Below are positions 876-18,966 of a stretch of 22,097 nt of DNA, piece after piece. The stretch comes from a virus. The number at the start of each line of letters is the position of its first letter. Positions within the stretch are counted from its first letter, which is position 1. The stretch is from IMG/VR virus record IMGVR_UViG_3300018421_000250, positions 1 through 22,097 of that record. The stretch is one strand, 5' to 3'. The position numbers were made by a program, and so were the translations under genes. The notes beneath the pieces are model-generated. The model was given only the letters and a program-made list of their open reading frames with translations, ran no database searches and was not told where the DNA came from.

Positions 876-900
876 ATACATAATAAGTAACCATAGGAGA
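875..900 (+). promoter_or_regulatory. Candidate late promoter and ribosome binding site of the giant fibre gene
   Basis: TATACATA at 875-882 differs at one base from the T4 late promoter box TATAAATA, which gp55-loaded RNA polymerase recognises. It lies immediately after the gp23 terminator and about 26 bases before the start of a structural gene, where a late promoter is expected. An AGGAGA ribosome binding site at 895-900 stands 8 bases before the ATG at 909. The box is short and partly shares the terminator T-run, so the promoter call is tentative. The ribosome binding site is convincing. Confidence 0.45.
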
Positions 901-908
901 AAGTAAGT

Positions 909-3900
909 ATGTCAAATGCATGGACTAATATATTTGATCTGTTGGATGAAAATTCTCAGATAATGTATGTTTCTAATGATGGTAATGATGGCACTGCTCA
1001 AATATATTCTAAGTCCGACTCTGAGATTGGAACTTCCCCTGAGTTTCCTACAGGAACAATCTATCCTTATGAAACATGGGAAGCAGCATATGCAAACATT
1101 AGACCAAACAAAAAAGACTGTGTTCTTTTTGCCAGAGGAAATACGTTTGAACTAAGAAATGGACTATTTACTCACGGTGGAAACTTTATTCCTACGCACG
1201 GACCAACTGCTGACCCACTTTCAACAATAATTGGATCATATGGTTTAACTGCAAATGATCGACCACTTATTACGACTCCGATATATCAAACACTTTCCCT
1301 TACTGGTGGTGTTGGTGATTTTAGTGTTGGTGAATATGTGGAAGGCTACCAATTGGGCGGGAATACAGCAGATGCTCCCGGCGGAACATTTTCTGCTTTA
1401 GTTGAATCTTGGAATTCTACGAGCAAACAACTAGTTGTAGTGGGTCTTACTGATTACCAGCAATTTGGCTTGAGTGGTGATTCTGATTTTTGGGGAGCCA
1501 CCATCACAGGACTTTCTTCTGGAACAGAGTATATAATTAATACAGACCCAGAGGTCTATGAAAAAGAAGAAGAACTAAGACCTCGCGCCCAACCAATCAT
1601 ATCCATTACAGGTCTTAAAGACACTTATCAAAATGCTTGTTTGGGTTTGTTTTCTCTTAACATAAAGACAGCAGGAACAGATGATCGTACTGCGAGTTGT
1701 ATTGCTATAAATGGAGCAAAAAATATTTATATCGAAGATTGTTTTCTTCGAGGTGGTATTGAAGTTGAAACATATTCTCATGGGAATCAGGGATATATTT
1801 CTTATCCCGGTAATATTCACATTTATAGATCAATAATTGTAGATGCATCTAGAAGAAGAGGAGGACACCACCAAGGATTGTTCTTGTCTGGTGTTGTTGG
1901 TGTTACTCTCGAAGAATGCGTCATGGACAGAAATGGTTATGCTGAAAATCCCATAGATCCAAGCACATGGTCTCAGCCACTAAAAACTGTAAATAATAGT
2001 GCTACAAATGCCGTAGAAACCGGCACTGGTGTTCAGCCCCATAGAACATGGTTCAGCAGAAACATCTATGCGTCTAGTTACAAAAACCTAAACCTCAAAG
2101 GAAACATTCTATCTAGAAGTGCATCTTCTCACCAAATGAGAAACGGTGGTGTTGCTGAAAGAAATGCATTTTTATGGAATGATTCTGCTCTTGCTCCAGC
2201 CATTCTATCAGCAAGAGAATGGGCTTCTGGAATTAACCTTGATAGAAACTTGGTTATGCACGAAGATCACCTTTTAGCAGCAGCCTTGGCTTCCGGTGGT
2301 ATGCAACCTGCTCTTGGTGGGGGCAATCAATTAATTGCAACTGAAAATATATTTTCAGGATTTATAAGACCAACGAGAGGATTGCTTTCATTTACTTCAT
2401 TCGGTGACTATGACATTACAAGTAGAGCATTAACAACATCACTCATAGGAAACAATAAGTTTTATCACCAACTTCCTGTTGGTGTTCCTATGGGAAGTGA
2501 TGCTCCATCTCTTTCGTTCAATACAGGTTTGACTGGAATAGAAGACTCATTATTCATCGGTGACTACATTTCATCCTCAAACGCAGACCTACAAAAGAAC
2601 GGAAATAAGAAATATGCATACGTCACTGGAATTTCTCATGGATCTGTTGCAGGAACTACAATTGAAATTGCTGCTGGTGGGTTTGGTCTAACTCCCGGAT
2701 ACACCAATGCAGATGATTTTTATCTTTTCAGTCACGGCGGCAGTACATCGGAAGAAATAACTCTACCGTCAGAAGAGGGAGAAAGAGCAACAGTAAACAA
2801 CAACGTATTTTTGACATACGACGAAGGCACGGTAATAAGTTTTAGATCAGTAAATCCAGATAGCAATTGGAATAATGGTATCAAATCATATGTTGGTTCT
2901 GGCAATGTTGTGGCTAGAATAGACAATACAAAAGCAAAACCACTTGCATTTGTAACCAGCGAAGACGCTAACTCTGAAACAGGAAATCTTCCTCCCACAA
3001 CATGGAGTTATGGAAGCAACTTCTTCAACCAATCTGAATATGGAGATTCACAACAGACTCCAGCAGGAACAAGAGAATTTAATAGTCTTGCTGAATTTCA
3101 AGTGGAAGGCTGGGAACCCAATTCAATAGAATATTCAGACATAACAACTTTAGGTACAACTTTAGGTTGGGAAACAACACAAGATGCCCAAGGAAGATAT
3201 AGTTGGGATAAAGATATTGTTTCTTATATGGAATCAATTGATGGTTCTTATGTTGTAGATGAAAATGTTACCGTTGACGATGGTGTTCCCACAGAAAACA
3301 AAAGAGTTGGTGCAATAAAAGTTTGGGAACTTCTTGCTGGTGTCGGCGGAGGAATCACACAATGCAACGTAGACGATCCTTTGTCCGAAGCAGACGCAAA
3401 ACTAACCGCACGAAGGTATCATGCATTTTTAACCTTCATAGAACGAGCCAGACAAAATAACCGATACAACTGGGACGAAAATTATACAGCAGACCGTCTA
3501 AATGACTACATGCGTTCCGGTCTTTCTATGGAGGCTGTTTCTGATACAGAATTTACTGCAATACAACCAGAACCACTTTTAATAGTTGGCGATTATGGTT
3601 TTAGTGGAGACTACGAGGGGGGTCCATATGCAGGTGAAACTGGTGCCACGGGAGCCACTGGAGCCACTGGAGCCACTGGAGCCACAGGAGCAACGGGTGC
3701 AACTGGTGCTACAGGAGAAACTGGTGCAAACGAAGAACAAGAAGGAAATGAAATAATGAGTTACGATTCAAACGGTTTCACAATATTAACACCTGCTTCT
3801 GATAGCAGATTGATGTATGTTTCCGCAGATGGCAATGACACAGAAGCCGCTGCTGTAAACAACGGAAAAGGATACTACCTGCCGAGCGATTCCGAAATCG

Positions 3901-6900
3901 GCTCCGATCCGACTAATCCAGTTGGTCCAATTGTTGCTTATGCAACTCACTTTGAAGCAGCAAAACGAGTTCGTTTATCAAGATCAACTGGAGAAGATGA
4001 AAATGGATTTCCTGTCTATGGATCAACCGACGAAGTAGGATACCCCGATTGGGTTCTGTTGCGCCGCGGCGACTCCTTTCTTGAAGATCCCATATTGCAG
4101 CATCCGAACAGCGGAAGAACTGCATCGTTCTCTCTTGGTCGACTTCTTGCCGGTTCGGGTGAACCAGTTACTGGTTGGAATGAAGAGAAACAACGCCTCT
4201 GGTACACCTGCGGTCCATGGCGAGGACGAAGCGTTTCCGAACCTGCCGTCGTCACAGCGTGGGGAAATACTGCTGACGCTAGACCTATCTTAAGCGGTTT
4301 TTCCATCTGTGGTGCAGGTCGGCATCTTCGAATAGTGTCCATTGATCTTGGAAATAACAATATGGGTTGGGGATGGGGCAACATAACCAACCATTCTGCC
4401 AAGGATATTCTCGTCGAAGACGTTAGGATGAAATCTTTAGGCGCGGTTAACAAATATGTTGCTCCCCAATTTCCATCCGAACCCGGTCTGTTAATCCGGC
4501 GGAATGTCATCTACGGCAACTTCAATCCCGATGGTCACAATCAGGGGTTCTTCCTCTACTCTCCTGAAACACATATAACAATTGAGGAAAACGTCTTCGA
4601 CAAGAACGGATTCAAGGAAGATCCCAACGAGCCGACGACATGGACACGCGGTATCGGAACGACCGACCCTCGACCGGTCGGACAAGGTGTGCAGCCCCAA
4701 CGGACCTACTTCGACCGGAATATGTACCTTTCCAATTACAAAAACTTAAAGGTCCGGGGCAACATCGTTGCAAGGGGTGGTGGTGGTTCGAGTCTACAGA
4801 TGCGTTGTGGTGGATTGTGCGAACGTAATCTGTTCCTGTTTTGCCAACAATCAGTGGGTGCTGGACACCCACAGAGTGACCAGAACCGATGGACCGACTT
4901 TCTGTTCAAACACAACATGATGCTTCACGACGACCTCTTTTTGCCGACGGGTGGGTGGGGGATAGGAATGTCAGCGAATGGAATAAACAGTTCGATAGTT
5001 ATAGATGACAATATTTGTGCCCACTTTCATAGGTATACAAATGGTGGTGGAATAGGTAATAGGAGTTTTGGTATTGGACCAAAAACGGTCGACATTTATA
5101 ATTCAGCGGGTGCGCTATATTATGGTATTTTGCAAAATAATGTTGCTGACCATCGCTATGGTGCCGGCGGCGTAGTATTAACCCTTGCGAATTATGAAGG
5201 ACTTGGTTACGATGGTTATGATCCAACCACGGGCGTAACAAATGCAGACGGAGCAATAATCTATAACCTTTTTGCTGGAGGAAATCAAATATCCTGCATA
5301 GTAGATTTTGATCTGTATGGTAATCAAACCGAATCTGTGTTTGTTAGTAGTTATAGAGATACACCAAACGAAAATATTGATTTTGGAAACAGTGTTGGAA
5401 ATTTATACCATGCAGATTTTCAAAATTCATACGGTGATCCGCCAACATTCAAACCTAACAATTTAGGTGTTGGTGTTGCGGTAAGCGACTTCAACTCTCA
5501 TAGAGAACAAGGCTATGATAGTGCGTCCACATTTGTAGAAAATAACTTTGAAGAGTTCAAAACACTTGCTGGTTGGACTTCTCCAGACAGAGACATCGTT
5601 TCCTACATGGAAGAAATTGATCCTGCTTATATAGTTGATGAAGATGTTTATGTTGATTACACCACAACCGGAACCAAACAAAATCCCCGACAAAAAGTAT
5701 GGGAGGTGCTGGACGAGGGAAGCGGCGATCCCGCCAAGGAGGCGTGGGCAAAACAGTGTGCTAGACGCTATCACGCTGCTTTAACTTTTCTAGAAAGATG
5801 CAGAAACAGAAGAAAATACAATTGGGACAATAATTATACAGCAGATGCCGTTAATAATTACATCAGAGAAGGATATGGAAAAGACTCTGTAGGTGGAACA
5901 TACGATGATAGATCAGTTGAATATAGAGTTCAGGATTACATCACCGAATGTTCCCTGCTACAAGTCGGCAATCCTCCAAGAACACCTATAGCACATGAAG
6001 GAGGAATTGGCTCTTTTGGTGTTGCATTAAGTATAACCGGATGTACTGCATGGTCTGCGTCTTGTGTAGAAGACTGGGTAACGATAACGGAAGGTGACGT
6101 AACCAACACCGGTGAAGGTACTGTAGTTTTTTCTGTAGAGCCACATACAGCAAATACCGGCAGAACAGCAGAAATTTCAATTAGTCCACACGGTATTACA
6201 CACACCATCATTCAAATAGGTGTAGGGGAAAAATGTTTTTACTCAGTAGGGGATAGAACATTTAAAAATCATATAGAACGTATCAACAAAAGAGTGAAAC
6301 TAGTGACAGTTCACCCCAATGTTGGGTGGACAGCAGGCACAGATGGCAGTTCATGGTTAACATTGCATACAACATCTGGAACCGGGGATGGTCTCATATA
6401 TTTTAGCCTAGAAGAAAATAAAACCACAGAAAACAGATTAGCAGAGATATACATAGGTCCAGAAGAAACTAGTCAGATTACATCCACCATTATTCAATAT
6501 GGAAATCCTGATGCGGAGTTTTGTTATGTTTCTTCTATAGATCCAATAACAAGAGAATTATCAGACTTTAATACAGACACTGGTTTAACATTCGGTGTTT
6601 CTATGGAAGAGGGAAATACTTGTGAGTGGTCAGCATCCACAAACAGCAATTTTATAACAATCACGAATTCTACTGGAGTTGATAATGATACGGTGGTATA
6701 TAATATAGATGAAAATATAACAGACACTGGTAGAACCGGTGAAATATCTATCGGAGGATTAACCCATTCTGTTTATCAACCGGGAAATCCTGATGTGCCT
6801 TTAGAATGCTCTGCTTCCTCTATAGATCCAATAACAACAGAATTATCAGACTTTAATGCAGACACTGGTTTACAGTTCGATTTTTCTCTAACTGATAATG

Positions 6901-8621
6901 CCTGTGAATGGACAGCCTACACAAACAGTAATTTTATAACCATCAAAAATTCATCTGGAACTGGTAGTGGTGCTGTTAATTATAAAATATCTGAAAATAT
7001 AACAGACACTGGTAGAACAGGTGAAATATCCATCGGAGGATTAACCCATTCTGTTTATCAACCGGGAAATCCTGATGCTGGGTCAGTTGATTATTGTGAT
7101 GCTTATTCTATAGAACCAACAATAGAAACATTATTGACCCCTACTCTAGAAAGTGATTTACAATTCAATGTCTATATGAGCAACATCAATATTATAGATC
7201 CCATTGGAGACAGTTGTAACTGGTTAGCAACTACAAACAGCAATTTTATAACAATCACGAATTCTACTGGAGTTGGTGATGGTACGGTGGTATATAATAT
7301 AGATGAAAATACAGCAGACACTGGTAGAACCGGTGAAATATCCATCGGAGGATTAACTCATTCTGTTTATCAACCTGCATCTTTTATCTCTCAAGAATGT
7401 TTCTTTGATGGTATAGATTCCGAAAAACAAAATTTAAACTATACTGCATCAACTGGAATAACATTTTATGTTGAGATGAATACTGAAGATTGTGGATGGA
7501 CAGCATCTACAAGCAATGAGTTTATAACAATCACAACTGCATCTGGAAATGGTAGTGGTAATGTAGTATATGGTGTGGACCAAAACAACACACAAGAAAT
7601 AAGAACAGGTGAAATATCAATTGGAGGATTAACTCATTCTATTAGACAAGGAATTGTATTTGGTTTAACTCAATCTTCCAGTGATCTTTTTGATAAAGAA
7701 GTCAAAGTCGCGTCAACATATACAACGACAGAAAAACTATCTAGTAATCTAGTGGTATTGTTTGATCCTCTTCCCAGCGAAGCAATGAATGAATCACTAA
7801 GAAACAGAGGGTTTCATCAATATATGATCATCTATGGATCATCAGATCCAAACCACAAGACAGGAACTATAGATGATACCAGAGTAATTGATTTCATCAG
7901 AGAAAAGTACGGAGACAATCCTACTGGTTATGGTGTTCTTGATTTTGAAACTCCTTACTTTTCAAACATTCTAAACCAAGATATTGGTTCCGATGACTTC
8001 AATCAATCTAAACAAGAATTGATTAGTTTAATACAAAGCGTAAAAACAGAATTTCCAAATGTTTCTTGGACACTATACGGATTTCCTGTGTTAAAACAAT
8101 GGCCTGAAAACAATTCTTGGTACAACCTAACACCGCGAGATAGAGAAAACATACTGGAAGATTCACTCGAAAGAAACAGCGATATAATGTCCAATATGGA
8201 TTGGCTTGCACCCAGCGTATACGACCATTATGACGACGAAGTACACAATCACACTGCCGGATTTTTAGAAGGAGAACGCTTATATAGATTCTATGCAGTG
8301 GAATTGTGTAGAAGATTTAACTCCACTTTTTCTCCAAGTTCTCCAAAACCAATTTATCCCTTTGTAAGTCCTATGTTTTGGAATACGGGCAATGTAGAGT
8401 ATAATATGAAGAAAATAGATTCTGAAGAATTTGTTAGAGATCAAATTCAAGGTCTTTTAGACAATAACGTGGATGGAATTGCATTTTGGACTGGTTTAAA
8501 ATATTGGGTAAGAATTGCAACTAGCAATGAAGACTATGGAACTCCCCAACAAGAAGCAAGAAACGCTTTCACAAAAGATTACTTTGATGGAACGGAACCA
8601 AACTGGCAAGGAAACATATAA
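909..8621 (+). CDS. Giant multidomain tail fibre / adhesin-like protein (2570 aa)
   Basis: This is a very large structural or receptor-binding protein, probably at the tail fibre or baseplate periphery. Residues 1 to about 872 form a module with repetitive short-strand sequence typical of right-handed beta-helix (pectate-lyase-like) proteins. Residues 909-941 are collagen-like Gly-X-Y triplets. Residues 950 to about 1657 are a second, diverged copy of the first module: both have an LMYVS or IMYVS strand, SDSEIG, GVQPxRTxFxRN, YKNLxxxGNI, DIVSYME, ARRYHA and NYTAD. Residues 1677 to about 2252 hold six BACON-like Ig-type repeats. Residues 2252-2570 are a barrel-like domain shared with the protein encoded at 9322-10617. 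There is no signal peptide. Start 909 has a good ribosome binding site. The stop overlaps the next start (TAATG). The fibre role is inferred from architecture and position; exact receptor and enzymatic activity are unknown. Confidence 0.8.
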   Translation: MSNAWTNIFDLLDENSQIMYVSNDGNDGTAQIYSKSDSEIGTSPEFPTGTIYPYETWEAAYANIRPNKKDCVLFARGNTFELRNGLFTHGGNFIPTHGPTADPLSTIIGSYGLTANDRPLITTPIYQTLSLTGGVGDFSVGEYVEGYQLGGNTADAPGGTFSALVESWNSTSKQLVVVGLTDYQQFGLSGDSDFWGATITGLSSGTEYIINTDPEVYEKEEELRPRAQPIISITGLKDTYQNACLGLFSLNIKTAGTDDRTASCIAINGAKNIYIEDCFLRGGIEVETYSHGNQGYISYPGNIHIYRSIIVDASRRRGGHHQGLFLSGVVGVTLEECVMDRNGYAENPIDPSTWSQPLKTVNNSATNAVETGTGVQPHRTWFSRNIYASSYKNLNLKGNILSRSASSHQMRNGGVAERNAFLWNDSALAPAILSAREWASGINLDRNLVMHEDHLLAAALASGGMQPALGGGNQLIATENIFSGFIRPTRGLLSFTSFGDYDITSRALTTSLIGNNKFYHQLPVGVPMGSDAPSLSFNTGLTGIEDSLFIGDYISSSNADLQKNGNKKYAYVTGISHGSVAGTTIEIAAGGFGLTPGYTNADDFYLFSHGGSTSEEITLPSEEGERATVNNNVFLTYDEGTVISFRSVNPDSNWNNGIKSYVGSGNVVARIDNTKAKPLAFVTSEDANSETGNLPPTTWSYGSNFFNQSEYGDSQQTPAGTREFNSLAEFQVEGWEPNSIEYSDITTLGTTLGWETTQDAQGRYSWDKDIVSYMESIDGSYVVDENVTVDDGVPTENKRVGAIKVWELLAGVGGGITQCNVDDPLSEADAKLTARRYHAFLTFIERARQNNRYNWDENYTADRLNDYMRSGLSMEAVSDTEFTAIQPEPLLIVGDYGFSGDYEGGPYAGETGATGATGATGATGATGATGATGATGETGANEEQEGNEIMSYDSNGFTILTPASDSRLMYVSADGNDTEAAAVNNGKGYYLPSDSEIGSDPTNPVGPIVAYATHFEAAKRVRLSRSTGEDENGFPVYGSTDEVGYPDWVLLRRGDSFLEDPILQHPNSGRTASFSLGRLLAGSGEPVTGWNEEKQRLWYTCGPWRGRSVSEPAVVTAWGNTADARPILSGFSICGAGRHLRIVSIDLGNNNMGWGWGNITNHSAKDILVEDVRMKSLGAVNKYVAPQFPSEPGLLIRRNVIYGNFNPDGHNQGFFLYSPETHITIEENVFDKNGFKEDPNEPTTWTRGIGTTDPRPVGQGVQPQRTYFDRNMYLSNYKNLKVRGNIVARGGGGSSLQMRCGGLCERNLFLFCQQSVGAGHPQSDQNRWTDFLFKHNMMLHDDLFLPTGGWGIGMSANGINSSIVIDDNICAHFHRYTNGGGIGNRSFGIGPKTVDIYNSAGALYYGILQNNVADHRYGAGGVVLTLANYEGLGYDGYDPTTGVTNADGAIIYNLFAGGNQISCIVDFDLYGNQTESVFVSSYRDTPNENIDFGNSVGNLYHADFQNSYGDPPTFKPNNLGVGVAVSDFNSHREQGYDSASTFVENNFEEFKTLAGWTSPDRDIVSYMEEIDPAYIVDEDVYVDYTTTGTKQNPRQKVWEVLDEGSGDPAKEAWAKQCARRYHAALTFLERCRNRRKYNWDNNYTADAVNNYIREGYGKDSVGGTYDDRSVEYRVQDYITECSLLQVGNPPRTPIAHEGGIGSFGVALSITGCTAWSASCVEDWVTITEGDVTNTGEGTVVFSVEPHTANTGRTAEISISPHGITHTIIQIGVGEKCFYSVGDRTFKNHIERINKRVKLVTVHPNVGWTAGTDGSSWLTLHTTSGTGDGLIYFSLEENKTTENRLAEIYIGPEETSQITSTIIQYGNPDAEFCYVSSIDPITRELSDFNTDTGLTFGVSMEEGNTCEWSASTNSNFITITNSTGVDNDTVVYNIDENITDTGRTGEISIGGLTHSVYQPGNPDVPLECSASSIDPITTELSDFNADTGLQFDFSLTDNACEWTAYTNSNFITIKNSSGTGSGAVNYKISENITDTGRTGEISIGGLTHSVYQPGNPDAGSVDYCDAYSIEPTIETLLTPTLESDLQFNVYMSNINIIDPIGDSCNWLATTNSNFITITNSTGVGDGTVVYNIDENTADTGRTGEISIGGLTHSVYQPASFISQECFFDGIDSEKQNLNYTASTGITFYVEMNTEDCGWTASTSNEFITITTASGNGSGNVVYGVDQNNTQEIRTGEISIGGLTHSIRQGIVFGLTQSSSDLFDKEVKVASTYTTTEKLSSNLVVLFDPLPSEAMNESLRNRGFHQYMIIYGSSDPNHKTGTIDDTRVIDFIREKYGDNPTGYGVLDFETPYFSNILNQDIGSDDFNQSKQELISLIQSVKTEFPNVSWTLYGFPVLKQWPENNSWYNLTPRDRENILEDSLERNSDIMSNMDWLAPSVYDHYDDEVHNHTAGFLEGERLYRFYAVELCRRFNSTFSPSSPKPIYPFVSPMFWNTGNVEYNMKKIDSEEFVRDQIQGLLDNNVDGIAFWTGLKYWVRIATSNEDYGTPQQEARNAFTKDYFDGTEPNWQGNI
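3633..3731 (+). repeat. Collagen-like Gly-X-Y repeat within the giant fibre gene
   Basis: Eleven consecutive Gly-X-Y triplets are encoded: GET, eight GAT, GET and GAN. In the DNA this is a 9-base tandem repeat (GGAGCCACT and close variants). Such stretches in phage fibres usually form a trimeric collagen-like stalk. Here it links the two beta-helix modules, at residues 909-941. Confidence 0.9.
3742..3758 (+). promoter_or_regulatory. Internal ribosome-binding-site-like sequence and in-frame ATG at the module 2 boundary
   Basis: AAGGAA at 3742-3747 is followed after 8 bases by an in-frame ATG at 3756. That ATG encodes the methionine that begins the second beta-helix module (MSYDSNG). The context resembles the initiation sites at 8608-8623 and 9310-9324. 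It may be a remnant of an ancestral separate gene or an active internal start giving a 1621-residue product. No direct evidence of use is available. Confidence 0.45.
4021..4980 (+). other. GC-rich, codon-atypical island inside the giant fibre gene
   Basis: Within the second beta-helix module, G+C rises sharply: 65% over 4621-4680 and 63% over 4201-4260. It falls abruptly to 32% over 4981-5040. GC-ending codons such as CGG, GCG, CCG and ACG are frequent here and rare on both sides. A small second patch occurs at 5701-5760 (67%). The pattern suggests that the core of this module was acquired from another genome by recombination within the gene. Confidence 0.7.
6639..6795 (+). repeat. Near-identical DNA repeat copy 1 (BACON-like unit 3)
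   Basis: The stretch encoding NSNFITITNSTGV through GRTGEISIGGLTHSVYQ is repeated almost base for base at 7001-7075 (second half only) and 7231-7375. Such identity inside diverged repeats points to recent duplication or gene conversion among units 3 to 5. Confidence 0.85.
7001..7075 (+). repeat. Near-identical DNA repeat copy 2 (BACON-like unit 4)
   Basis: This copy encodes ITDTGRTGEISIGGLTHSVY and the linker GNPD. It matches the end of unit 3 with only scattered base changes, and also ends in the CCGGGAAATCCTGATG linker. Confidence 0.85.
7231..7375 (+). repeat. Near-identical DNA repeat copy 3 (BACON-like unit 5)
   Basis: The first half matches 6639-6680 almost exactly, and the second half matches both other copies. 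The GNPD linker is lost here and replaced by an unrelated linker. Confidence 0.85.
7662..8618 (+). other. C-terminal barrel-like domain of the giant fibre protein (possible glycoside hydrolase)
   Basis: Residues 2252-2570 align along their length with residues of the separate protein at 9322-10617. Shared blocks include YGDNP/YGDKE, GYGxLD[FY]E, EFPxxxWTxYGxPxLKxW, DWLxPSxYxxYDxxVH and GxAxWxxxxYxxR. A D-x-E pair lies at D2345 and E2347. The order of these blocks (acidic pair on a strand, W-x-x-YGFP strand, W-x-x-PSxY strand) recalls the TIM-barrel hyaluronidase-like (GH56) family. This assignment is by eye and uncertain; the paralogy between the two proteins is clear. Confidence 0.55.
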
Positions 8622-9253
8622 TGCGCACAGTAGAATCATATTTAGCAGAAGAATCTTCGGTTTTAGTAGAGCAACTTATGTTAGCAGCATTTGGTGCTGC
8701 CGGTGGTTTAGAGGAATCAGTTCAACCAGAAGATCAAACACCGACAGATATAGGTCCAATTGCAACTCAACCATCAAACCAAAACTACATTTATCAGACA
8801 TACTACAGATTTGTATTGCAGGAAATGCCCAACCTAGAATACTTCATAACTAAAGTATCACTACCAAGTTTTGGTTATGATAGTGCTATTGAGCAACCCA
8901 ATAGATTTTCACTTATTCGACATCCAGCAAGTAAAGTTGTTTTTAGTCCTCTTGAAATGTCATTTCTAGTTGATGAAAACATGGAAAACTGGCTAGAAAT
9001 ATACAACTGGATTCGTAGAACAAGTGTTGTAGATGATCACAGAGACATACTAGAAGACACCAAAGAACATTTTACTCAAGGAACATTATTCATTACCAAT
9101 AGTGCAATGAATCCCAATCTAGAGGTTACTTTCTACAATATGTTCCCAATATCTGTAAGTGGATTTGAATTTGACAGTCAAATTACAGATCTTACTCCTT
9201 GGACTGCAAACGTAACCTTTGCTTATGATTACTACGACATCAAAAAACTTTAA
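8621..9253 (+). CDS. gp19-like (tail-tube family) structural protein
   Basis: This is a 210-residue protein. After a low-complexity N-terminal region of about 55 residues, it has the pattern of T4 gp19-family tail tube proteins of marine myoviruses: YRFVLQEMPNLEYFITKVSLPSF, a segment with ASKVVFSPLEMSFLVDEN, MENWLEIYNWIRR, a strand giving TLFITNSAMNPNLEVTFYNM, and FPISVSGFEFDS near the end. That fold also occurs in the gp54 tube initiator and other baseplate proteins. The major tube subunit normally sits next to the sheath gene, so this could instead be a paralogue that seats or connects the fibre. Its ATG overlaps the stop of the giant gene (TAATG) with AAGGAA 7 bases before it, so the two are probably translated together and may assemble together. 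Confidence 0.65.
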   Translation: MRTVESYLAEESSVLVEQLMLAAFGAAGGLEESVQPEDQTPTDIGPIATQPSNQNYIYQTYYRFVLQEMPNLEYFITKVSLPSFGYDSAIEQPNRFSLIRHPASKVVFSPLEMSFLVDENMENWLEIYNWIRRTSVVDDHRDILEDTKEHFTQGTLFITNSAMNPNLEVTFYNMFPISVSGFEFDSQITDLTPWTANVTFAYDYYDIKKL

Positions 9254-9262
9254 ACTTTCTTC

Positions 9263-9290
9263 TTGACAGATAATAAAACCTATGTACACT
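9263..9290 (+). promoter_or_regulatory. Sigma70-like promoter before the 431-aa barrel protein
   Basis: A perfect -35 box TTGACA at 9263-9268 is followed after 16 bases by TACACT at 9285-9290. Transcription would start near 9297, giving a leader of about 25 bases that contains AAGGAA 6 bases before the ATG at 9322. It sits in one of the few non-coding gaps of the window and shares its layout with the promoters at 10614 and 17479. Confidence 0.7.
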
Positions 9291-9321
9291 CTGAGTGTCA
9301 ACGAAGGAAAAGGAAACATAT

Positions 9322-10617
9322 ATGCTCTCTAGAATACTAAGATCTCTTAAGGGTGATACCCAAGTCAAAGTCAAACAGAATCCAGAACTTGCTCCTCCAC
9401 TAGTTCCAGAAGAAGAACTTACTCTTCCTGATCTCTTGTCTGCATGGGGAACATACGATCCAACATACGATTTAAACGGAGATGGAATTGTGAACGGAGA
9501 AGATCTTGGTTTGTTTCTTCTTCGTAAACCACCAGCAGAAGAAAAGGAAGATCGAAACCTGATTCTCTATCCACAACACGGTGTTCTATCAACTAGGTTT
9601 CCAGTTCCTCCAATGTATGATGCCATTCTCAAACTTGAACAAGAAGAGGAGATGGATCAATTTGCAAGAAGAAGAGCAGGTGCAGAAACCTATTACATCT
9701 GGTATGCATCTTGGGATATTGGTCATGGCAAAGAAACTGGTAGTCTCAGTATCAATGAAGATCAGATCATAGAAAATGTTAGAAAGTATTATGGAGACAA
9801 GGAACCAGAGGGTTATGGACAACTAGACTACGAGGGTAACTTCTTCCGTGGATTGGACAAGGGAGAAGGAACTGTAGAAAATCAAGAAGCAACGCGAGTC
9901 ATGCTCAAGGCACTTCGTCGAATGAAGCAAGAGTTTCCCAAGATGAAGTGGACCTATTATGGTTTACCTATGCTGAAGTATTGGCTTCCACACCCCTCAC
10001 CCACAAATGCATATACATGGGTCAATGCTCCTTTGGAAGTAAAGATACAGGAGATCGAACACAAGTATGCAGCATATAGAGAACTTCTATCAGAGTGTGA
10101 TTGGTTGAATCCTTCGTTCTACAATCGCTATGATCCTGATGTTCATAAAAACAACATAGTTGCCAGAGAAGCAACATATAGAAAAGAACTGGTTGTTTTC
10201 TGTCATATGTTCAATGAAAGACTTGGAACCAACAAACCAATCATACCAATGACATGCCCTTGGTATGTTGCTGGTGGTAAGGTTGAATATGACTATAAGA
10301 CTGTTCAAGATCAGTTTATGCTTGACACTGTTATCAATCCTTATCTGGAAGAAGGTGTAAATGGTTTTGCATTGTGGTATGCACACAGTTACTATGCTAG
10401 ACTTGCATTCGAATACAACTCCAACACCAGAAATCCAAAGCACTATGATGCCTTTATCAAAAACTACAATCAAGATCCAAGAAGGTTTGATCTGGAGAAT
10501 ATGACACCCGAACAAAGCATGGAGTGGAAAGATCTCTACATGGAGAAGTCCAGTGAAACGATTCTCAATCACATGAAGGTGATGAGAAGTTCAATGGATC
10601 GGTTTTATTCTACTTGA
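9322..10617 (+). CDS. Dockerin-like motif plus barrel-like (possible glycoside hydrolase) protein, 431 aa
   Basis: The start ATG at 9322 is chosen because AAGGAA lies 6 bases before it. A GTG at 9295 in the same frame is less likely because it coincides with the predicted transcript start. Residues 38-49 read LPDLLSAWGTYD with more following, then an EF-hand-type loop D50-x-N52-G-D54-G-x-V-N58-x-x-D61 and DLGLFLL. This matches one half of a dockerin-type calcium-binding repeat. Residues from about 115 onward form the same domain as the C-terminus of the giant fibre protein, with D169-Y-E171, KWTYYGLPMLKYW and DWLNPSFYNRYD. No signal peptide or membrane segment is seen. The likely role is a virion-associated or secreted enzyme acting on host glycan, or an accessory fibre part. 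The enzymatic role is inference from distant resemblance to GH56-like barrels. Confidence 0.6.
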   Translation: MLSRILRSLKGDTQVKVKQNPELAPPLVPEEELTLPDLLSAWGTYDPTYDLNGDGIVNGEDLGLFLLRKPPAEEKEDRNLILYPQHGVLSTRFPVPPMYDAILKLEQEEEMDQFARRRAGAETYYIWYASWDIGHGKETGSLSINEDQIIENVRKYYGDKEPEGYGQLDYEGNFFRGLDKGEGTVENQEATRVMLKALRRMKQEFPKMKWTYYGLPMLKYWLPHPSPTNAYTWVNAPLEVKIQEIEHKYAAYRELLSECDWLNPSFYNRYDPDVHKNNIVAREATYRKELVVFCHMFNERLGTNKPIIPMTCPWYVAGGKVEYDYKTVQDQFMLDTVINPYLEEGVNGFALWYAHSYYARLAFEYNSNTRNPKHYDAFIKNYNQDPRRFDLENMTPEQSMEWKDLYMEKSSETILNHMKVMRSSMDRFYST

Positions 10618-17512: not shown

Positions 17513-17983
17513 ATGAACATCTTCGTACTAGACAAAGATCCAATCGTTGCAGCAAAAATGCAGTGTGACAAGCATGTGGTGAAAATGGTTTTAGAAACTG
17601 CTCAGATGCTTTGCACCGCTCATCCGAAAGATGCTGCTCCATACAAACCAGCATACATCAACCATCCATGCACTGTGTGGGCAAGACAGTCCGTTGATAA
17701 CTACAGGTGGTTATCTATTCATGGTCTTGCTCTTGCTTTGGAGTATAGAAACAGATACAAAAAGATTCACAAGTCTGAAAAGGTGATTATGTGGTGTCAC
17801 GACCATATTCCACAAATACCAACCATCGGAATCACATCAAGACCCAAGTGTATGCCTGACAAATACAAGGTTCCGAGTGTGGTTCAATCATATCGCAATT
17901 ACTATAATGGAGACAAAGCGGGCTTTGCCCAGTGGAAGTTTTCAGAATCTCCTGAATGGTTTATGGGAGAGTTCGTAAAATGA
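17513..17983 (+). CDS. Conserved phage protein of unknown function (CDKHVVKM family)
   Basis: This 156-residue protein belongs to a family I recognise from many marine and other phages by its N-terminus, MNIFVLDKDP and then C18-D19-K20-H21-VVKM. Other family marks are ETAQMLCTAH, NHPCTVWAR, the block MPDKYK, and YRNYYNGDK near the end. The N-terminal D-x-H helix faintly resembles phage pyrimidine-dimer DNA glycosylases, so a DNA repair role is possible but unproven. It opens a transcription unit directly behind a promoter, with no usable ribosome binding site of its own on that transcript. Its last codons overlap the epimerase start (ATGA). Confidence 0.8.
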   Translation: MNIFVLDKDPIVAAKMQCDKHVVKMVLETAQMLCTAHPKDAAPYKPAYINHPCTVWARQSVDNYRWLSIHGLALALEYRNRYKKIHKSEKVIMWCHDHIPQIPTIGITSRPKCMPDKYKVPSVVQSYRNYYNGDKAGFAQWKFSESPEWFMGEFVK

Positions 17984-18966
17984 ATCACTCTAAAATTTTA
18001 ATTACGGGTGGTGCTGGATATATAGGATCGCACGCGGTAGCATCTATATTGGCAACAAATAGATCTGTTGTTGTGGTGGACAGAGACAAGGAAGCCTGCG
18101 ACAATCTGATAAACATTTTTGACAACAACAAAAACTTGAAGGTTCATTGCACTGATATAGACAATGATGTGTGGATGGATGGTATATTAGAAAACGAAAA
18201 ACCAACAGCATGTTTGCATTTTGCTGCTGACATATCGGTTCCTGAATCCGTATCAAATCCACTTAAATATTATCACAACAACACAGCAAAGACAATAAAC
18301 TTATTAAAGCGATTGAATCGACATGGTGTGCATAGGTTTATATTCTCAAGCACTGCTGCCGTATACGGCTTGCCGGAAAATGCCGAGGACATAACAGAGA
18401 CAACTCCATGCAAGCCGACCAATGCATATGGTAATTCAAAGTTAATGGTTGAGTTTATACTCAAGCAAATGTCAGATACCATTCCAGCATTTGAGTATAC
18501 CTCATTCAGATATTTTAATGTTGCAGGAACTCATATGTCTGGAAAAGTATATGATTCCCGATGGAAAGAAAAAGAAAATGTTTTTCCTAAGTTCATAAAC
18601 GGTATTTTACACCAAGAAGGAAAGATCGAAGTCTATGGTGCAGATTATCCAACAAAGGATGGAACTGCTATAAGAGACTACATACATCCCGAAGATGTAA
18701 TATCAGCAACCATGATTGCTCTTGACAACGATATCACTGGCGTATACAATCTTGGGTCGAATGAAGGATCGTCTGTTTGGGATGTTGTTGAGAAATTTGT
18801 TTCGGTGACAAATCAAGAATTGGATGTCCTTCATAAAGACAGAAGGAAAGGAGATCCAGCAGTTCTTGTTGCTAATTCTAGAGCGTTTAGGGCAATATCA
18901 GGTTGGGAACCTGCATATACACTAAAGGACATGGTTGCCACTGCTTGGAAAACTTACGGTATCTAA
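17980..18966 (+). CDS. galE: UDP-glucose 4-epimerase-like (GalE) short-chain dehydrogenase family enzyme
   Basis: GalE interconverts UDP-glucose and UDP-galactose with bound NAD. The 328-residue protein is close to E. coli GalE (338). The NAD-binding motif TGGAGYIGSH is at residues 9-18, the catalytic Ser-Thr region is FSSTAAVYG, the Tyr/Lys pair is Y150-x-x-x-K154, and the substrate loop is RDYIHPEDV. The start at 17980 is chosen because GGGAGA lies about 10 bases upstream and because it gives the usual short lead to the first strand; an in-frame ATG at 17956 would add eight unrelated residues. It is a metabolic gene between DNA-replication genes. It may supply sugar nucleotides for glycosylating phage DNA or proteins, or alter host surface glycan. 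Related nucleotide-sugar specificity cannot be excluded. Confidence 0.85.
   Translation: MNHSKILITGGAGYIGSHAVASILATNRSVVVVDRDKEACDNLINIFDNNKNLKVHCTDIDNDVWMDGILENEKPTACLHFAADISVPESVSNPLKYYHNNTAKTINLLKRLNRHGVHRFIFSSTAAVYGLPENAEDITETTPCKPTNAYGNSKLMVEFILKQMSDTIPAFEYTSFRYFNVAGTHMSGKVYDSRWKEKENVFPKFINGILHQEGKIEVYGADYPTKDGTAIRDYIHPEDVISATMIALDNDITGVYNLGSNEGSSVWDVVEKFVSVTNQELDVLHKDRRKGDPAVLVANSRAFRAISGWEPAYTLKDMVATAWKTYGI

What the first reader, a model, noticed from the sequence alone, without database searches (positions are those of the whole stretch)
7662..10617. The same barrel-like domain serves as a fibre tip and as a separate protein two genes on
Residues 2252-2570 of the giant protein and the main part of the 431-residue protein align over about 300 residues with shared blocks such as GYGxLD[FY]E, WTxYGxPxLKxW and DWLxPSxYxxYD. 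A D-x-E pair is kept in both (D2345/E2347 and D169/E171). The block order recalls hyaluronidase-like GH56 barrels. One copy may be fixed to the virion while the other is free or docked, acting on the same glycan.
Basis: partly seen in the sequence, partly recalled or inferred. Interest (0 to 1): 0.72.

Follow-up and report, generated by a model that had tools for sequence, protein, structure and literature searches.

The report
Twin hyaluronidase-like enzymes in marine phage
A T4-like phage known only from environmental DNA carries two related copies of a barrel-shaped domain that most resembles animal and venom hyaluronidases, one at the end of a giant tail-fibre-like protein and one as a separate protein, probably to cut sugar chains on its host's surface; no phage in the collections searched was known to use this enzyme type.

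Summary
The last ~300 residues of the 2570-aa BACON-repeat fibre and the 431-aa protein two genes on share a domain (32% identity over 281 aa, E 6e-38), with the quoted motifs and the D-x-E pair.

The GH56 idea, made by eye, is well supported by structure. Template-free AlphaFold2 models of both copies (modest confidence: pTM 0.64 and 0.60) rank the six GH56 hyaluronidase entries first: Z 11.8-13.9 and 14.1-15.7, next unrelated entries 9.5 and 9.9. Foldseek agrees. A weak profile hit to wasp hyaluronidase (E 2.5) pairs the phage D, E and YGxP tyrosine with that enzyme's active-site Asp107, Glu109 and Tyr180.

By sequence it is not GH56: the Pfam profile finds nothing and the disulphides are missing.

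Sister phages carry, at the same place, a 398-aa stand-alone version instead of the fibre. No relatives turned up in annotated phages, plasmids or bacterial genomes by the searches run.

Best reading: paired GH56-type glycosidases that cut an N-acetylhexosamine-containing host glycan during adsorption. Fold is fairly firm; activity, substrate and virion location are inferred.

The parts
909..8621 (+). giant fibre-like gene, 2570 aa: two paralogous N-terminal units, collagen-like GAT linker, BACON repeats, GH56-like C-terminal domain
   Evidence: BACON PF13004 E 2.3e-23, six stretches; tail-fibre PHROGs hit the GAT stretch; halves 35% over 232 aa and 48% over 127 aa
3633..3737 (+). collagen-like GATGAT... 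linker between the two paralogous units
6006..7649 (+). tandem BACON-repeat stalk
   Evidence: six stretches of PF13004, five of PF19190
7662..8621 (+). GH56-like barrel domain at the C-terminus of the fibre
7941..7949 (+). codons of D2345-F-E2347, predicted catalytic D-x-E
   Evidence: aligned with wasp Asp107/Glu109; end of predicted strand 75-82
8076..8078 (+). Y2390 of YGxP, aligned with wasp active-site Tyr180
   Evidence: PMC6892566
8220..8222 (+). Y2438 of PSxY, proposed counterpart of bee Tyr227 (by motif and order only)
   Evidence: inference
8487..8489 (+). W2527 of G.A.W, proposed counterpart of bee Trp301 (by motif and order only)
   Evidence: inference
8621..9253 (+). gp3-type tail protein (tail-tube fold), 210 aa, between the two copies
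9322..10617 (+). stand-alone 431-aa protein with the same domain (GTG 9295 possible start)
9421..9528 (+). single dockerin-like calcium-loop repeat near the N-terminus of the 431-aa protein
   Evidence: dockerin 6kg9 E 0.0095; PF00404 at 9463-9507, E 0.006, below cut-off
9826..9834 (+). codons of D169-Y-E171, predicted catalytic D-x-E of the 431-aa protein
10507..10617 (+). conserved C-terminal helix of the stand-alone protein, absent from the fibre copy

Best explanation
Both copies are glycoside hydrolases built on a GH56 (hyaluronidase)-type barrel. The fibre copy sits at the far end of a long BACON-repeat stalk and would cut a host-surface polysaccharide as the phage adsorbs. The 431-aa copy is a second, diverged enzyme with its own dockerin-like repeat and C-terminal helix, either docked elsewhere on the particle or released. 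By analogy with GH56, the Glu of D-x-E donates the proton and the substrate's own N-acetyl group, held by the Asp and conserved tyrosines, acts as nucleophile, so the substrate should contain a beta-linked N-acetylhexosamine. Shown here: homology of the two copies, predicted fold, conservation of the D-x-E and tyrosine. Inferred: catalysis, substrate, virion location, division of labour.
For: Homology E 6e-38. Fold: six GH56 entries rank 1-6 for both models, with a gap of more than 2 Z units (fibre tip) and more than 4 (ORF431) to the next rows. Foldseek: for the fibre tip GH56 takes ranks 1-5 at 1.7e-7 to 9.9e-6, next 2e-4; for ORF431 the only five hits below 1e-3 are GH56. Register: HMMER pairs the phage D-x-E and YGxP tyrosine with 2atm positions 107, 109 and 180, named as active-site residues in PMC6892566, where the Asp+Glu double mutant was dead. 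The motif GYGxLDxE resembles wasp GIGVIDFE and lacks the earlier Asp residues of the GH18 DxxDxDxE signature. Purifying selection on ORF431 between lineages: dN 0.29, dS saturated. Tandem BACON repeats sit in tail-associated proteins of other phages (PMC6949934).
Against: Models have low mean pLDDT (58.9, 55.6) from a five-row alignment; Foldseek TM-scores are only about 0.5 or less. Sequence-only evidence is not significant (best GH56 profile hit E 2.5; two sub-profiles miss GH56; PF01630 finds nothing). The two disulphides of the wasp enzyme cannot form (fibre domain has one Cys). No cohesin was found in the held fragments, so docking through the dockerin-like repeat is unsupported.
Confidence: 0.6

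Rival explanations
1. The domain keeps the GH56-like fold but works as a glycan-binding receptor tip (pseudo-enzyme) in one or both copies.
For: Fibre tips are commonly receptor binders; no activity can be shown here; the two copies have diverged to about 32% identity.
Against: D, E and three aromatic pocket-type residues are invariant in all four divergent versions, whereas loss of catalysis usually frees the acid residue.
Confidence: 0.2
2. The domain is a TIM-barrel hydrolase of another family (GH18/GH84/GH5-like), for example a tail-associated peptidoglycan or chitin-type hydrolase, and the GH56 rank reflects a model bias.
For: GH5_18, GH18 and heparanase-type barrels follow in the lists; viral predicted structures give a GH18 protein first at E 4.6e-4; models are of modest confidence.
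Against: GH56 leads by clear margins in both models and both programs; the GH18 DxxDxDxE signature is incomplete (only D-x-E kept).
Confidence: 0.15
3. The fibre fusion is an assembly chimera, and only stand-alone copies exist in nature.
For: No other contig was found to carry the giant gene, and four sister contigs have a 398-aa gene there.
Against: One open frame of 2570 codons; the fused domain is the counterpart of the gene that sits at that very place in sisters (about 40% identical, shared C-terminal AFTKDYFxGTEP tail); sequence flanking the swap is 92.6-98.5% identical to the sisters.
Confidence: 0.05

Closest known systems
GH56 hyaluronidases (bee Api m 2, wasp Ves v 2, human HYAL1 and PH-20)
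   Same: Predicted barrel fold, D-x-E pair, YGxP tyrosine in register, block order PSxY and G.A.W
   Different: 13-18% identity in structural alignments, not detected by Pfam PF01630, no conserved disulphides; GH56 is described from mammals and venoms (PMC11669647), this is in a phage
Phage hyaluronate lyases of family PL16 (HylP of streptococcal phages)
   Same: Phage tail-associated enzymes against a host uronic-acid polysaccharide; collagen-like Gly-X-Y stretches occur in some
   Different: PL16 is a triple-stranded beta-helix lyase, not a barrel hydrolase (PMC11669647, PMC12254123)
crAss-like phage BACON-repeat tail proteins
   Same: Tandem BACON repeats in a large tail-associated protein (PMC6949934)
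   Different: This is a T4-like phage and the array ends in a GH56-like domain
Clostridial dockerins (6kg9 and others)
   Same: DLNGDGxVNGxDL calcium-loop repeat
   Different: Only one loop, below Pfam's cut-off, no cohesin found

Membership tests
GH56 (Glyco_hydro_56, PF01630) | Sequence similarity to family members (basis of CAZy/Pfam membership) | tested here: not met
   PF01630 gives no match at E<=10 in the window or six sister records; hmmscan of five members none; best PDB profile hit to GH56 E 2.5
GH56 (Glyco_hydro_56, PF01630) | Distorted (beta/alpha)7 TIM-type barrel of the hyaluronidase type | tested here: met
   Six GH56 entries top both lists, Z up to 13.9 and 15.7; Foldseek E to 1.7e-7 and 9.8e-6. 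Strand count not resolved; models of modest confidence
GH56 (Glyco_hydro_56, PF01630) | Catalytic Asp-x-Glu at a strand end | tested here: met
   Invariant D/E aligned with wasp 107/109, at or next to the end of a predicted strand
GH56 (Glyco_hydro_56, PF01630) | Active-site tyrosines and Trp (bee Tyr184, Tyr227, Trp301) | tested here: inconclusive
   Tyr184 counterpart (wasp 180) in register; Tyr227 and Trp301 counterparts assigned only by motif and order, invariant in A2
GH56 (Glyco_hydro_56, PF01630) | Two disulphides of the eukaryotic enzymes | tested here: not met
   Fibre domain has a single Cys
GH56 (Glyco_hydro_56, PF01630) | Endo-hydrolysis of hyaluronan/chondroitin with substrate assistance | not testable with these tools
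   needs an assay
GH18 chitinases | DxxDxDxE signature on strand 4 | tested here: not met
   Aligned stretch is GYGVLDFE / GYGQLDYE / TYIMVDFE; only the final D-x-E is kept
Dockerin type I (PF00404) | Two calcium-binding loop-helix repeats, above family cut-off | tested here: not met
   One loop, 11.9 bits against a cut-off of 22.9
BACON repeat protein | Tandem PF13004 domains above the cut-off | tested here: met
   82.4 bits against 25, six stretches

The most novel reading that the evidence does not exclude
A phage lineage owns a previously unseen clade of GH56-type glycosidases, duplicated into a fibre-tip copy and a particle-docked or secreted copy, showing that the hyaluronidase barrel, known from animals, also exists as a viral depolymerase with a different, bacterial substrate.
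Probability: 0.5. Interest if true: 0.75.

Novelty: new variant of a known kind. Interest (0 to 1): 0.6.

Why it matters
Hyaluronidases of the GH56 type are described from mammals and venoms, while known phage hyaluronidases are PL16 beta-helix lyases (PMC11669647). A phage clade with the GH56-type fold and pocket would widen the range of phage depolymerase chemistry, give a small version of the barrel without the disulphides that may express easily in bacteria, and bear on where the GH56 barrel came from. The swap between a stand-alone gene and a giant-fibre fusion at one locus shows how a phage may move an enzyme onto or off a stalk.

Tried and rejected
Sequence libraries: Pfam, PHROGs and NCBIfam give nothing informative for the domain. 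Relatives: none in 50,697 phage records, plasmids, GTDB species contigs by pattern scan, or viral contigs beyond the sister group and one 66-kb contig; pattern scans miss distant relatives. An own degenerate pattern (D-x-E ... YGxP....W) gave 108 stretches; an A2 profile found no new relatives among them. Profiles from each copy type alone do not pick up GH56 in PDB sequences. The viral structure library listed no hyaluronidase among its best 50 rows. A search for prokaryotic GH56 proteins, to build a family profile for profile-profile comparison, could not be centred on any genome; a genome-contig scan with the neighbouring epimerase-like protein gave no anchor. Paper searches for GH56 in phages found only reviews and venom or saliva papers.

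Full report
What the window is. The window is a virus record of 22,097 bases with a T4-like order: gp23 major head protein (end of the gene, phrog_138), a 2570-aa fibre-like gene, a gp3-type tail protein, the 431-aa protein, UvsY (phrog_231), a UvsW helicase and further replication genes. Prochlorococcus phage P-SSM2 has gp23, a phytanoyl-CoA dioxygenase, gp3 and UvsY in the same order, and Methylophilales phage Melnitz has gp23, a tail-tube-type protein and UvsY. The slot after gp23 therefore takes accessory genes. The host is unknown, and 'marine' rests on the nearest annotated relatives being phages of marine bacteria, not on sample data.

The observation. The C-terminal domain of the fibre and the 431-aa protein are homologous at E 6e-38, with the motifs as quoted. 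Adding a 460-aa relative from a 66-kb contig (L005, 56% to the 431-aa protein) and the 398-aa sister protein (L001) leaves 42 invariant columns, among them D, E, the YGxP tyrosine, the PSxY tyrosine and the G.A.W tryptophan.

Sister phages show a cassette swap. Four contigs (L001, L002, L003, L006) match the window at 95.5% across the gp23 gene and at 92.6-98.5% from within the gp3-type gene onward, but between these points carry a 398-aa protein in place of the 7.7-kb fibre gene. That protein is the same domain with a short leader. It is closer to the fibre tip (about 40% over 300 aa) than the fibre tip is to the 431-aa protein (33%), and the two share a C-terminal AFTKDYFxGTEP tail. So a duplication most likely came first, giving the fibre-slot type and the 431 type, and the fibre-slot copy exists both alone and fused to a stalk. 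Which state is older cannot be told.

Fold. AlphaFold2 was run without templates on shallow alignments (five rows). The fibre-tip model has mean pLDDT 58.9, pTM 0.64; the 431-aa model 55.6, pTM 0.60. VIA-align ranks six GH56 entries first in both: bee 1fcq/1fcu/2j88, wasp 2atm, human PH-20 9jub and HYAL1 2pe4, Z 11.8-13.9 for the fibre tip (next 9.5) and 14.1-15.7 for the 431-aa protein (next 9.9). Foldseek gives E 1.7e-7 for the fibre tip and 9.8e-6 for the 431-aa protein; for the latter only GH56 chains score below 1e-3. The two models share alignment rows, so they are not fully independent.

Active site. The combined profile's weak match to wasp hyaluronidase (E 2.5) pairs the phage D-x-E with chain positions 107 and 109, and the YGxP tyrosine with position 180 (counted from the printed stretches, which end at 110 and 186). 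PMC6892566 names Asp107, Glu109, Tyr51, Tyr180, Tyr223 and Trp296 in hymenopteran hyaluronidases of this numbering and reports that the Asp+Glu double mutant is inactive; PMC4619011 gives bee Asp111, Glu113, Tyr184, Tyr227 and Trp301. The score is not significant on its own; the register is what counts. Counterparts of Tyr227 and Trp301 are proposed from motif and order only. In both models the D-x-E lies at or just past the end of a strand.

Mechanism proposed. GH56 enzymes retain configuration with the substrate's N-acetyl group as nucleophile and Glu as acid (PMC12254123). If the phage domain works the same way, it needs a beta-linked N-acetylhexosamine. A fibre-borne copy would open a capsule or slime layer at adsorption. 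The 431-aa copy has a single dockerin-like calcium loop and a conserved C-terminal helix. In the sister phages the gp3-type protein next to it carries the same kind of loop in an N-terminal extension, which hints at a shared attachment system on the tail; no cohesin was found in the held fragments, so this is only a lead.

Membership. By sequence it is not GH56: PF01630 finds nothing and the disulphides are lacking. I file it as GH56-like in fold and pocket, working like a GH56 enzyme with moderate probability, not as a member.

Novelty. No relative in annotated phages, plasmids or species genomes by the scans used, and no hyaluronidase-type match among the best 50 rows of the viral structure library. 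Reviews place GH56 in mammals and venoms, and phage hyaluronidases in PL16 (PMC11669647). Pattern-based scans can miss distant relatives, so the family may be wider than it looks here.

Noticed in passing
L001:5108-5959 (also L002, L003): The sister phages' gp3-type tail protein has an N-terminal extension with a dockerin-like calcium loop (DYNGDGNVDGADLGILL), like that of the 431-aa protein; the window's version of this gene lacks it.
   Followed up: partly
L005:3795-4148 (- strand): A 117-aa protein with a similar dockerin-like loop on the 66-kb contig that also carries the 460-aa relative; best PF00404 score of the set (19.8 bits, below cut-off).
   Followed up: partly
window 909-6005: The N-terminal two thirds of the giant protein are two diverged copies of one large unit (35% over 232 aa, 48% over 127 aa) joined by a collagen-like GAT linker; no relatives found elsewhere.
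   Followed up: partly
window 882-8736 against L001 3873-5442: Cassette swap: 7.7-kb fibre gene in the window, 398-aa gene in sisters, between a near-identical gp23 gene and the rest of the region.
   Followed up: yes
window 17956-18966: A 336-aa protein that reads like a NAD-dependent sugar epimerase (judged by eye, no family search run), next to replication genes; a pattern scan of species genomes confirmed no relative.
   Followed up: no
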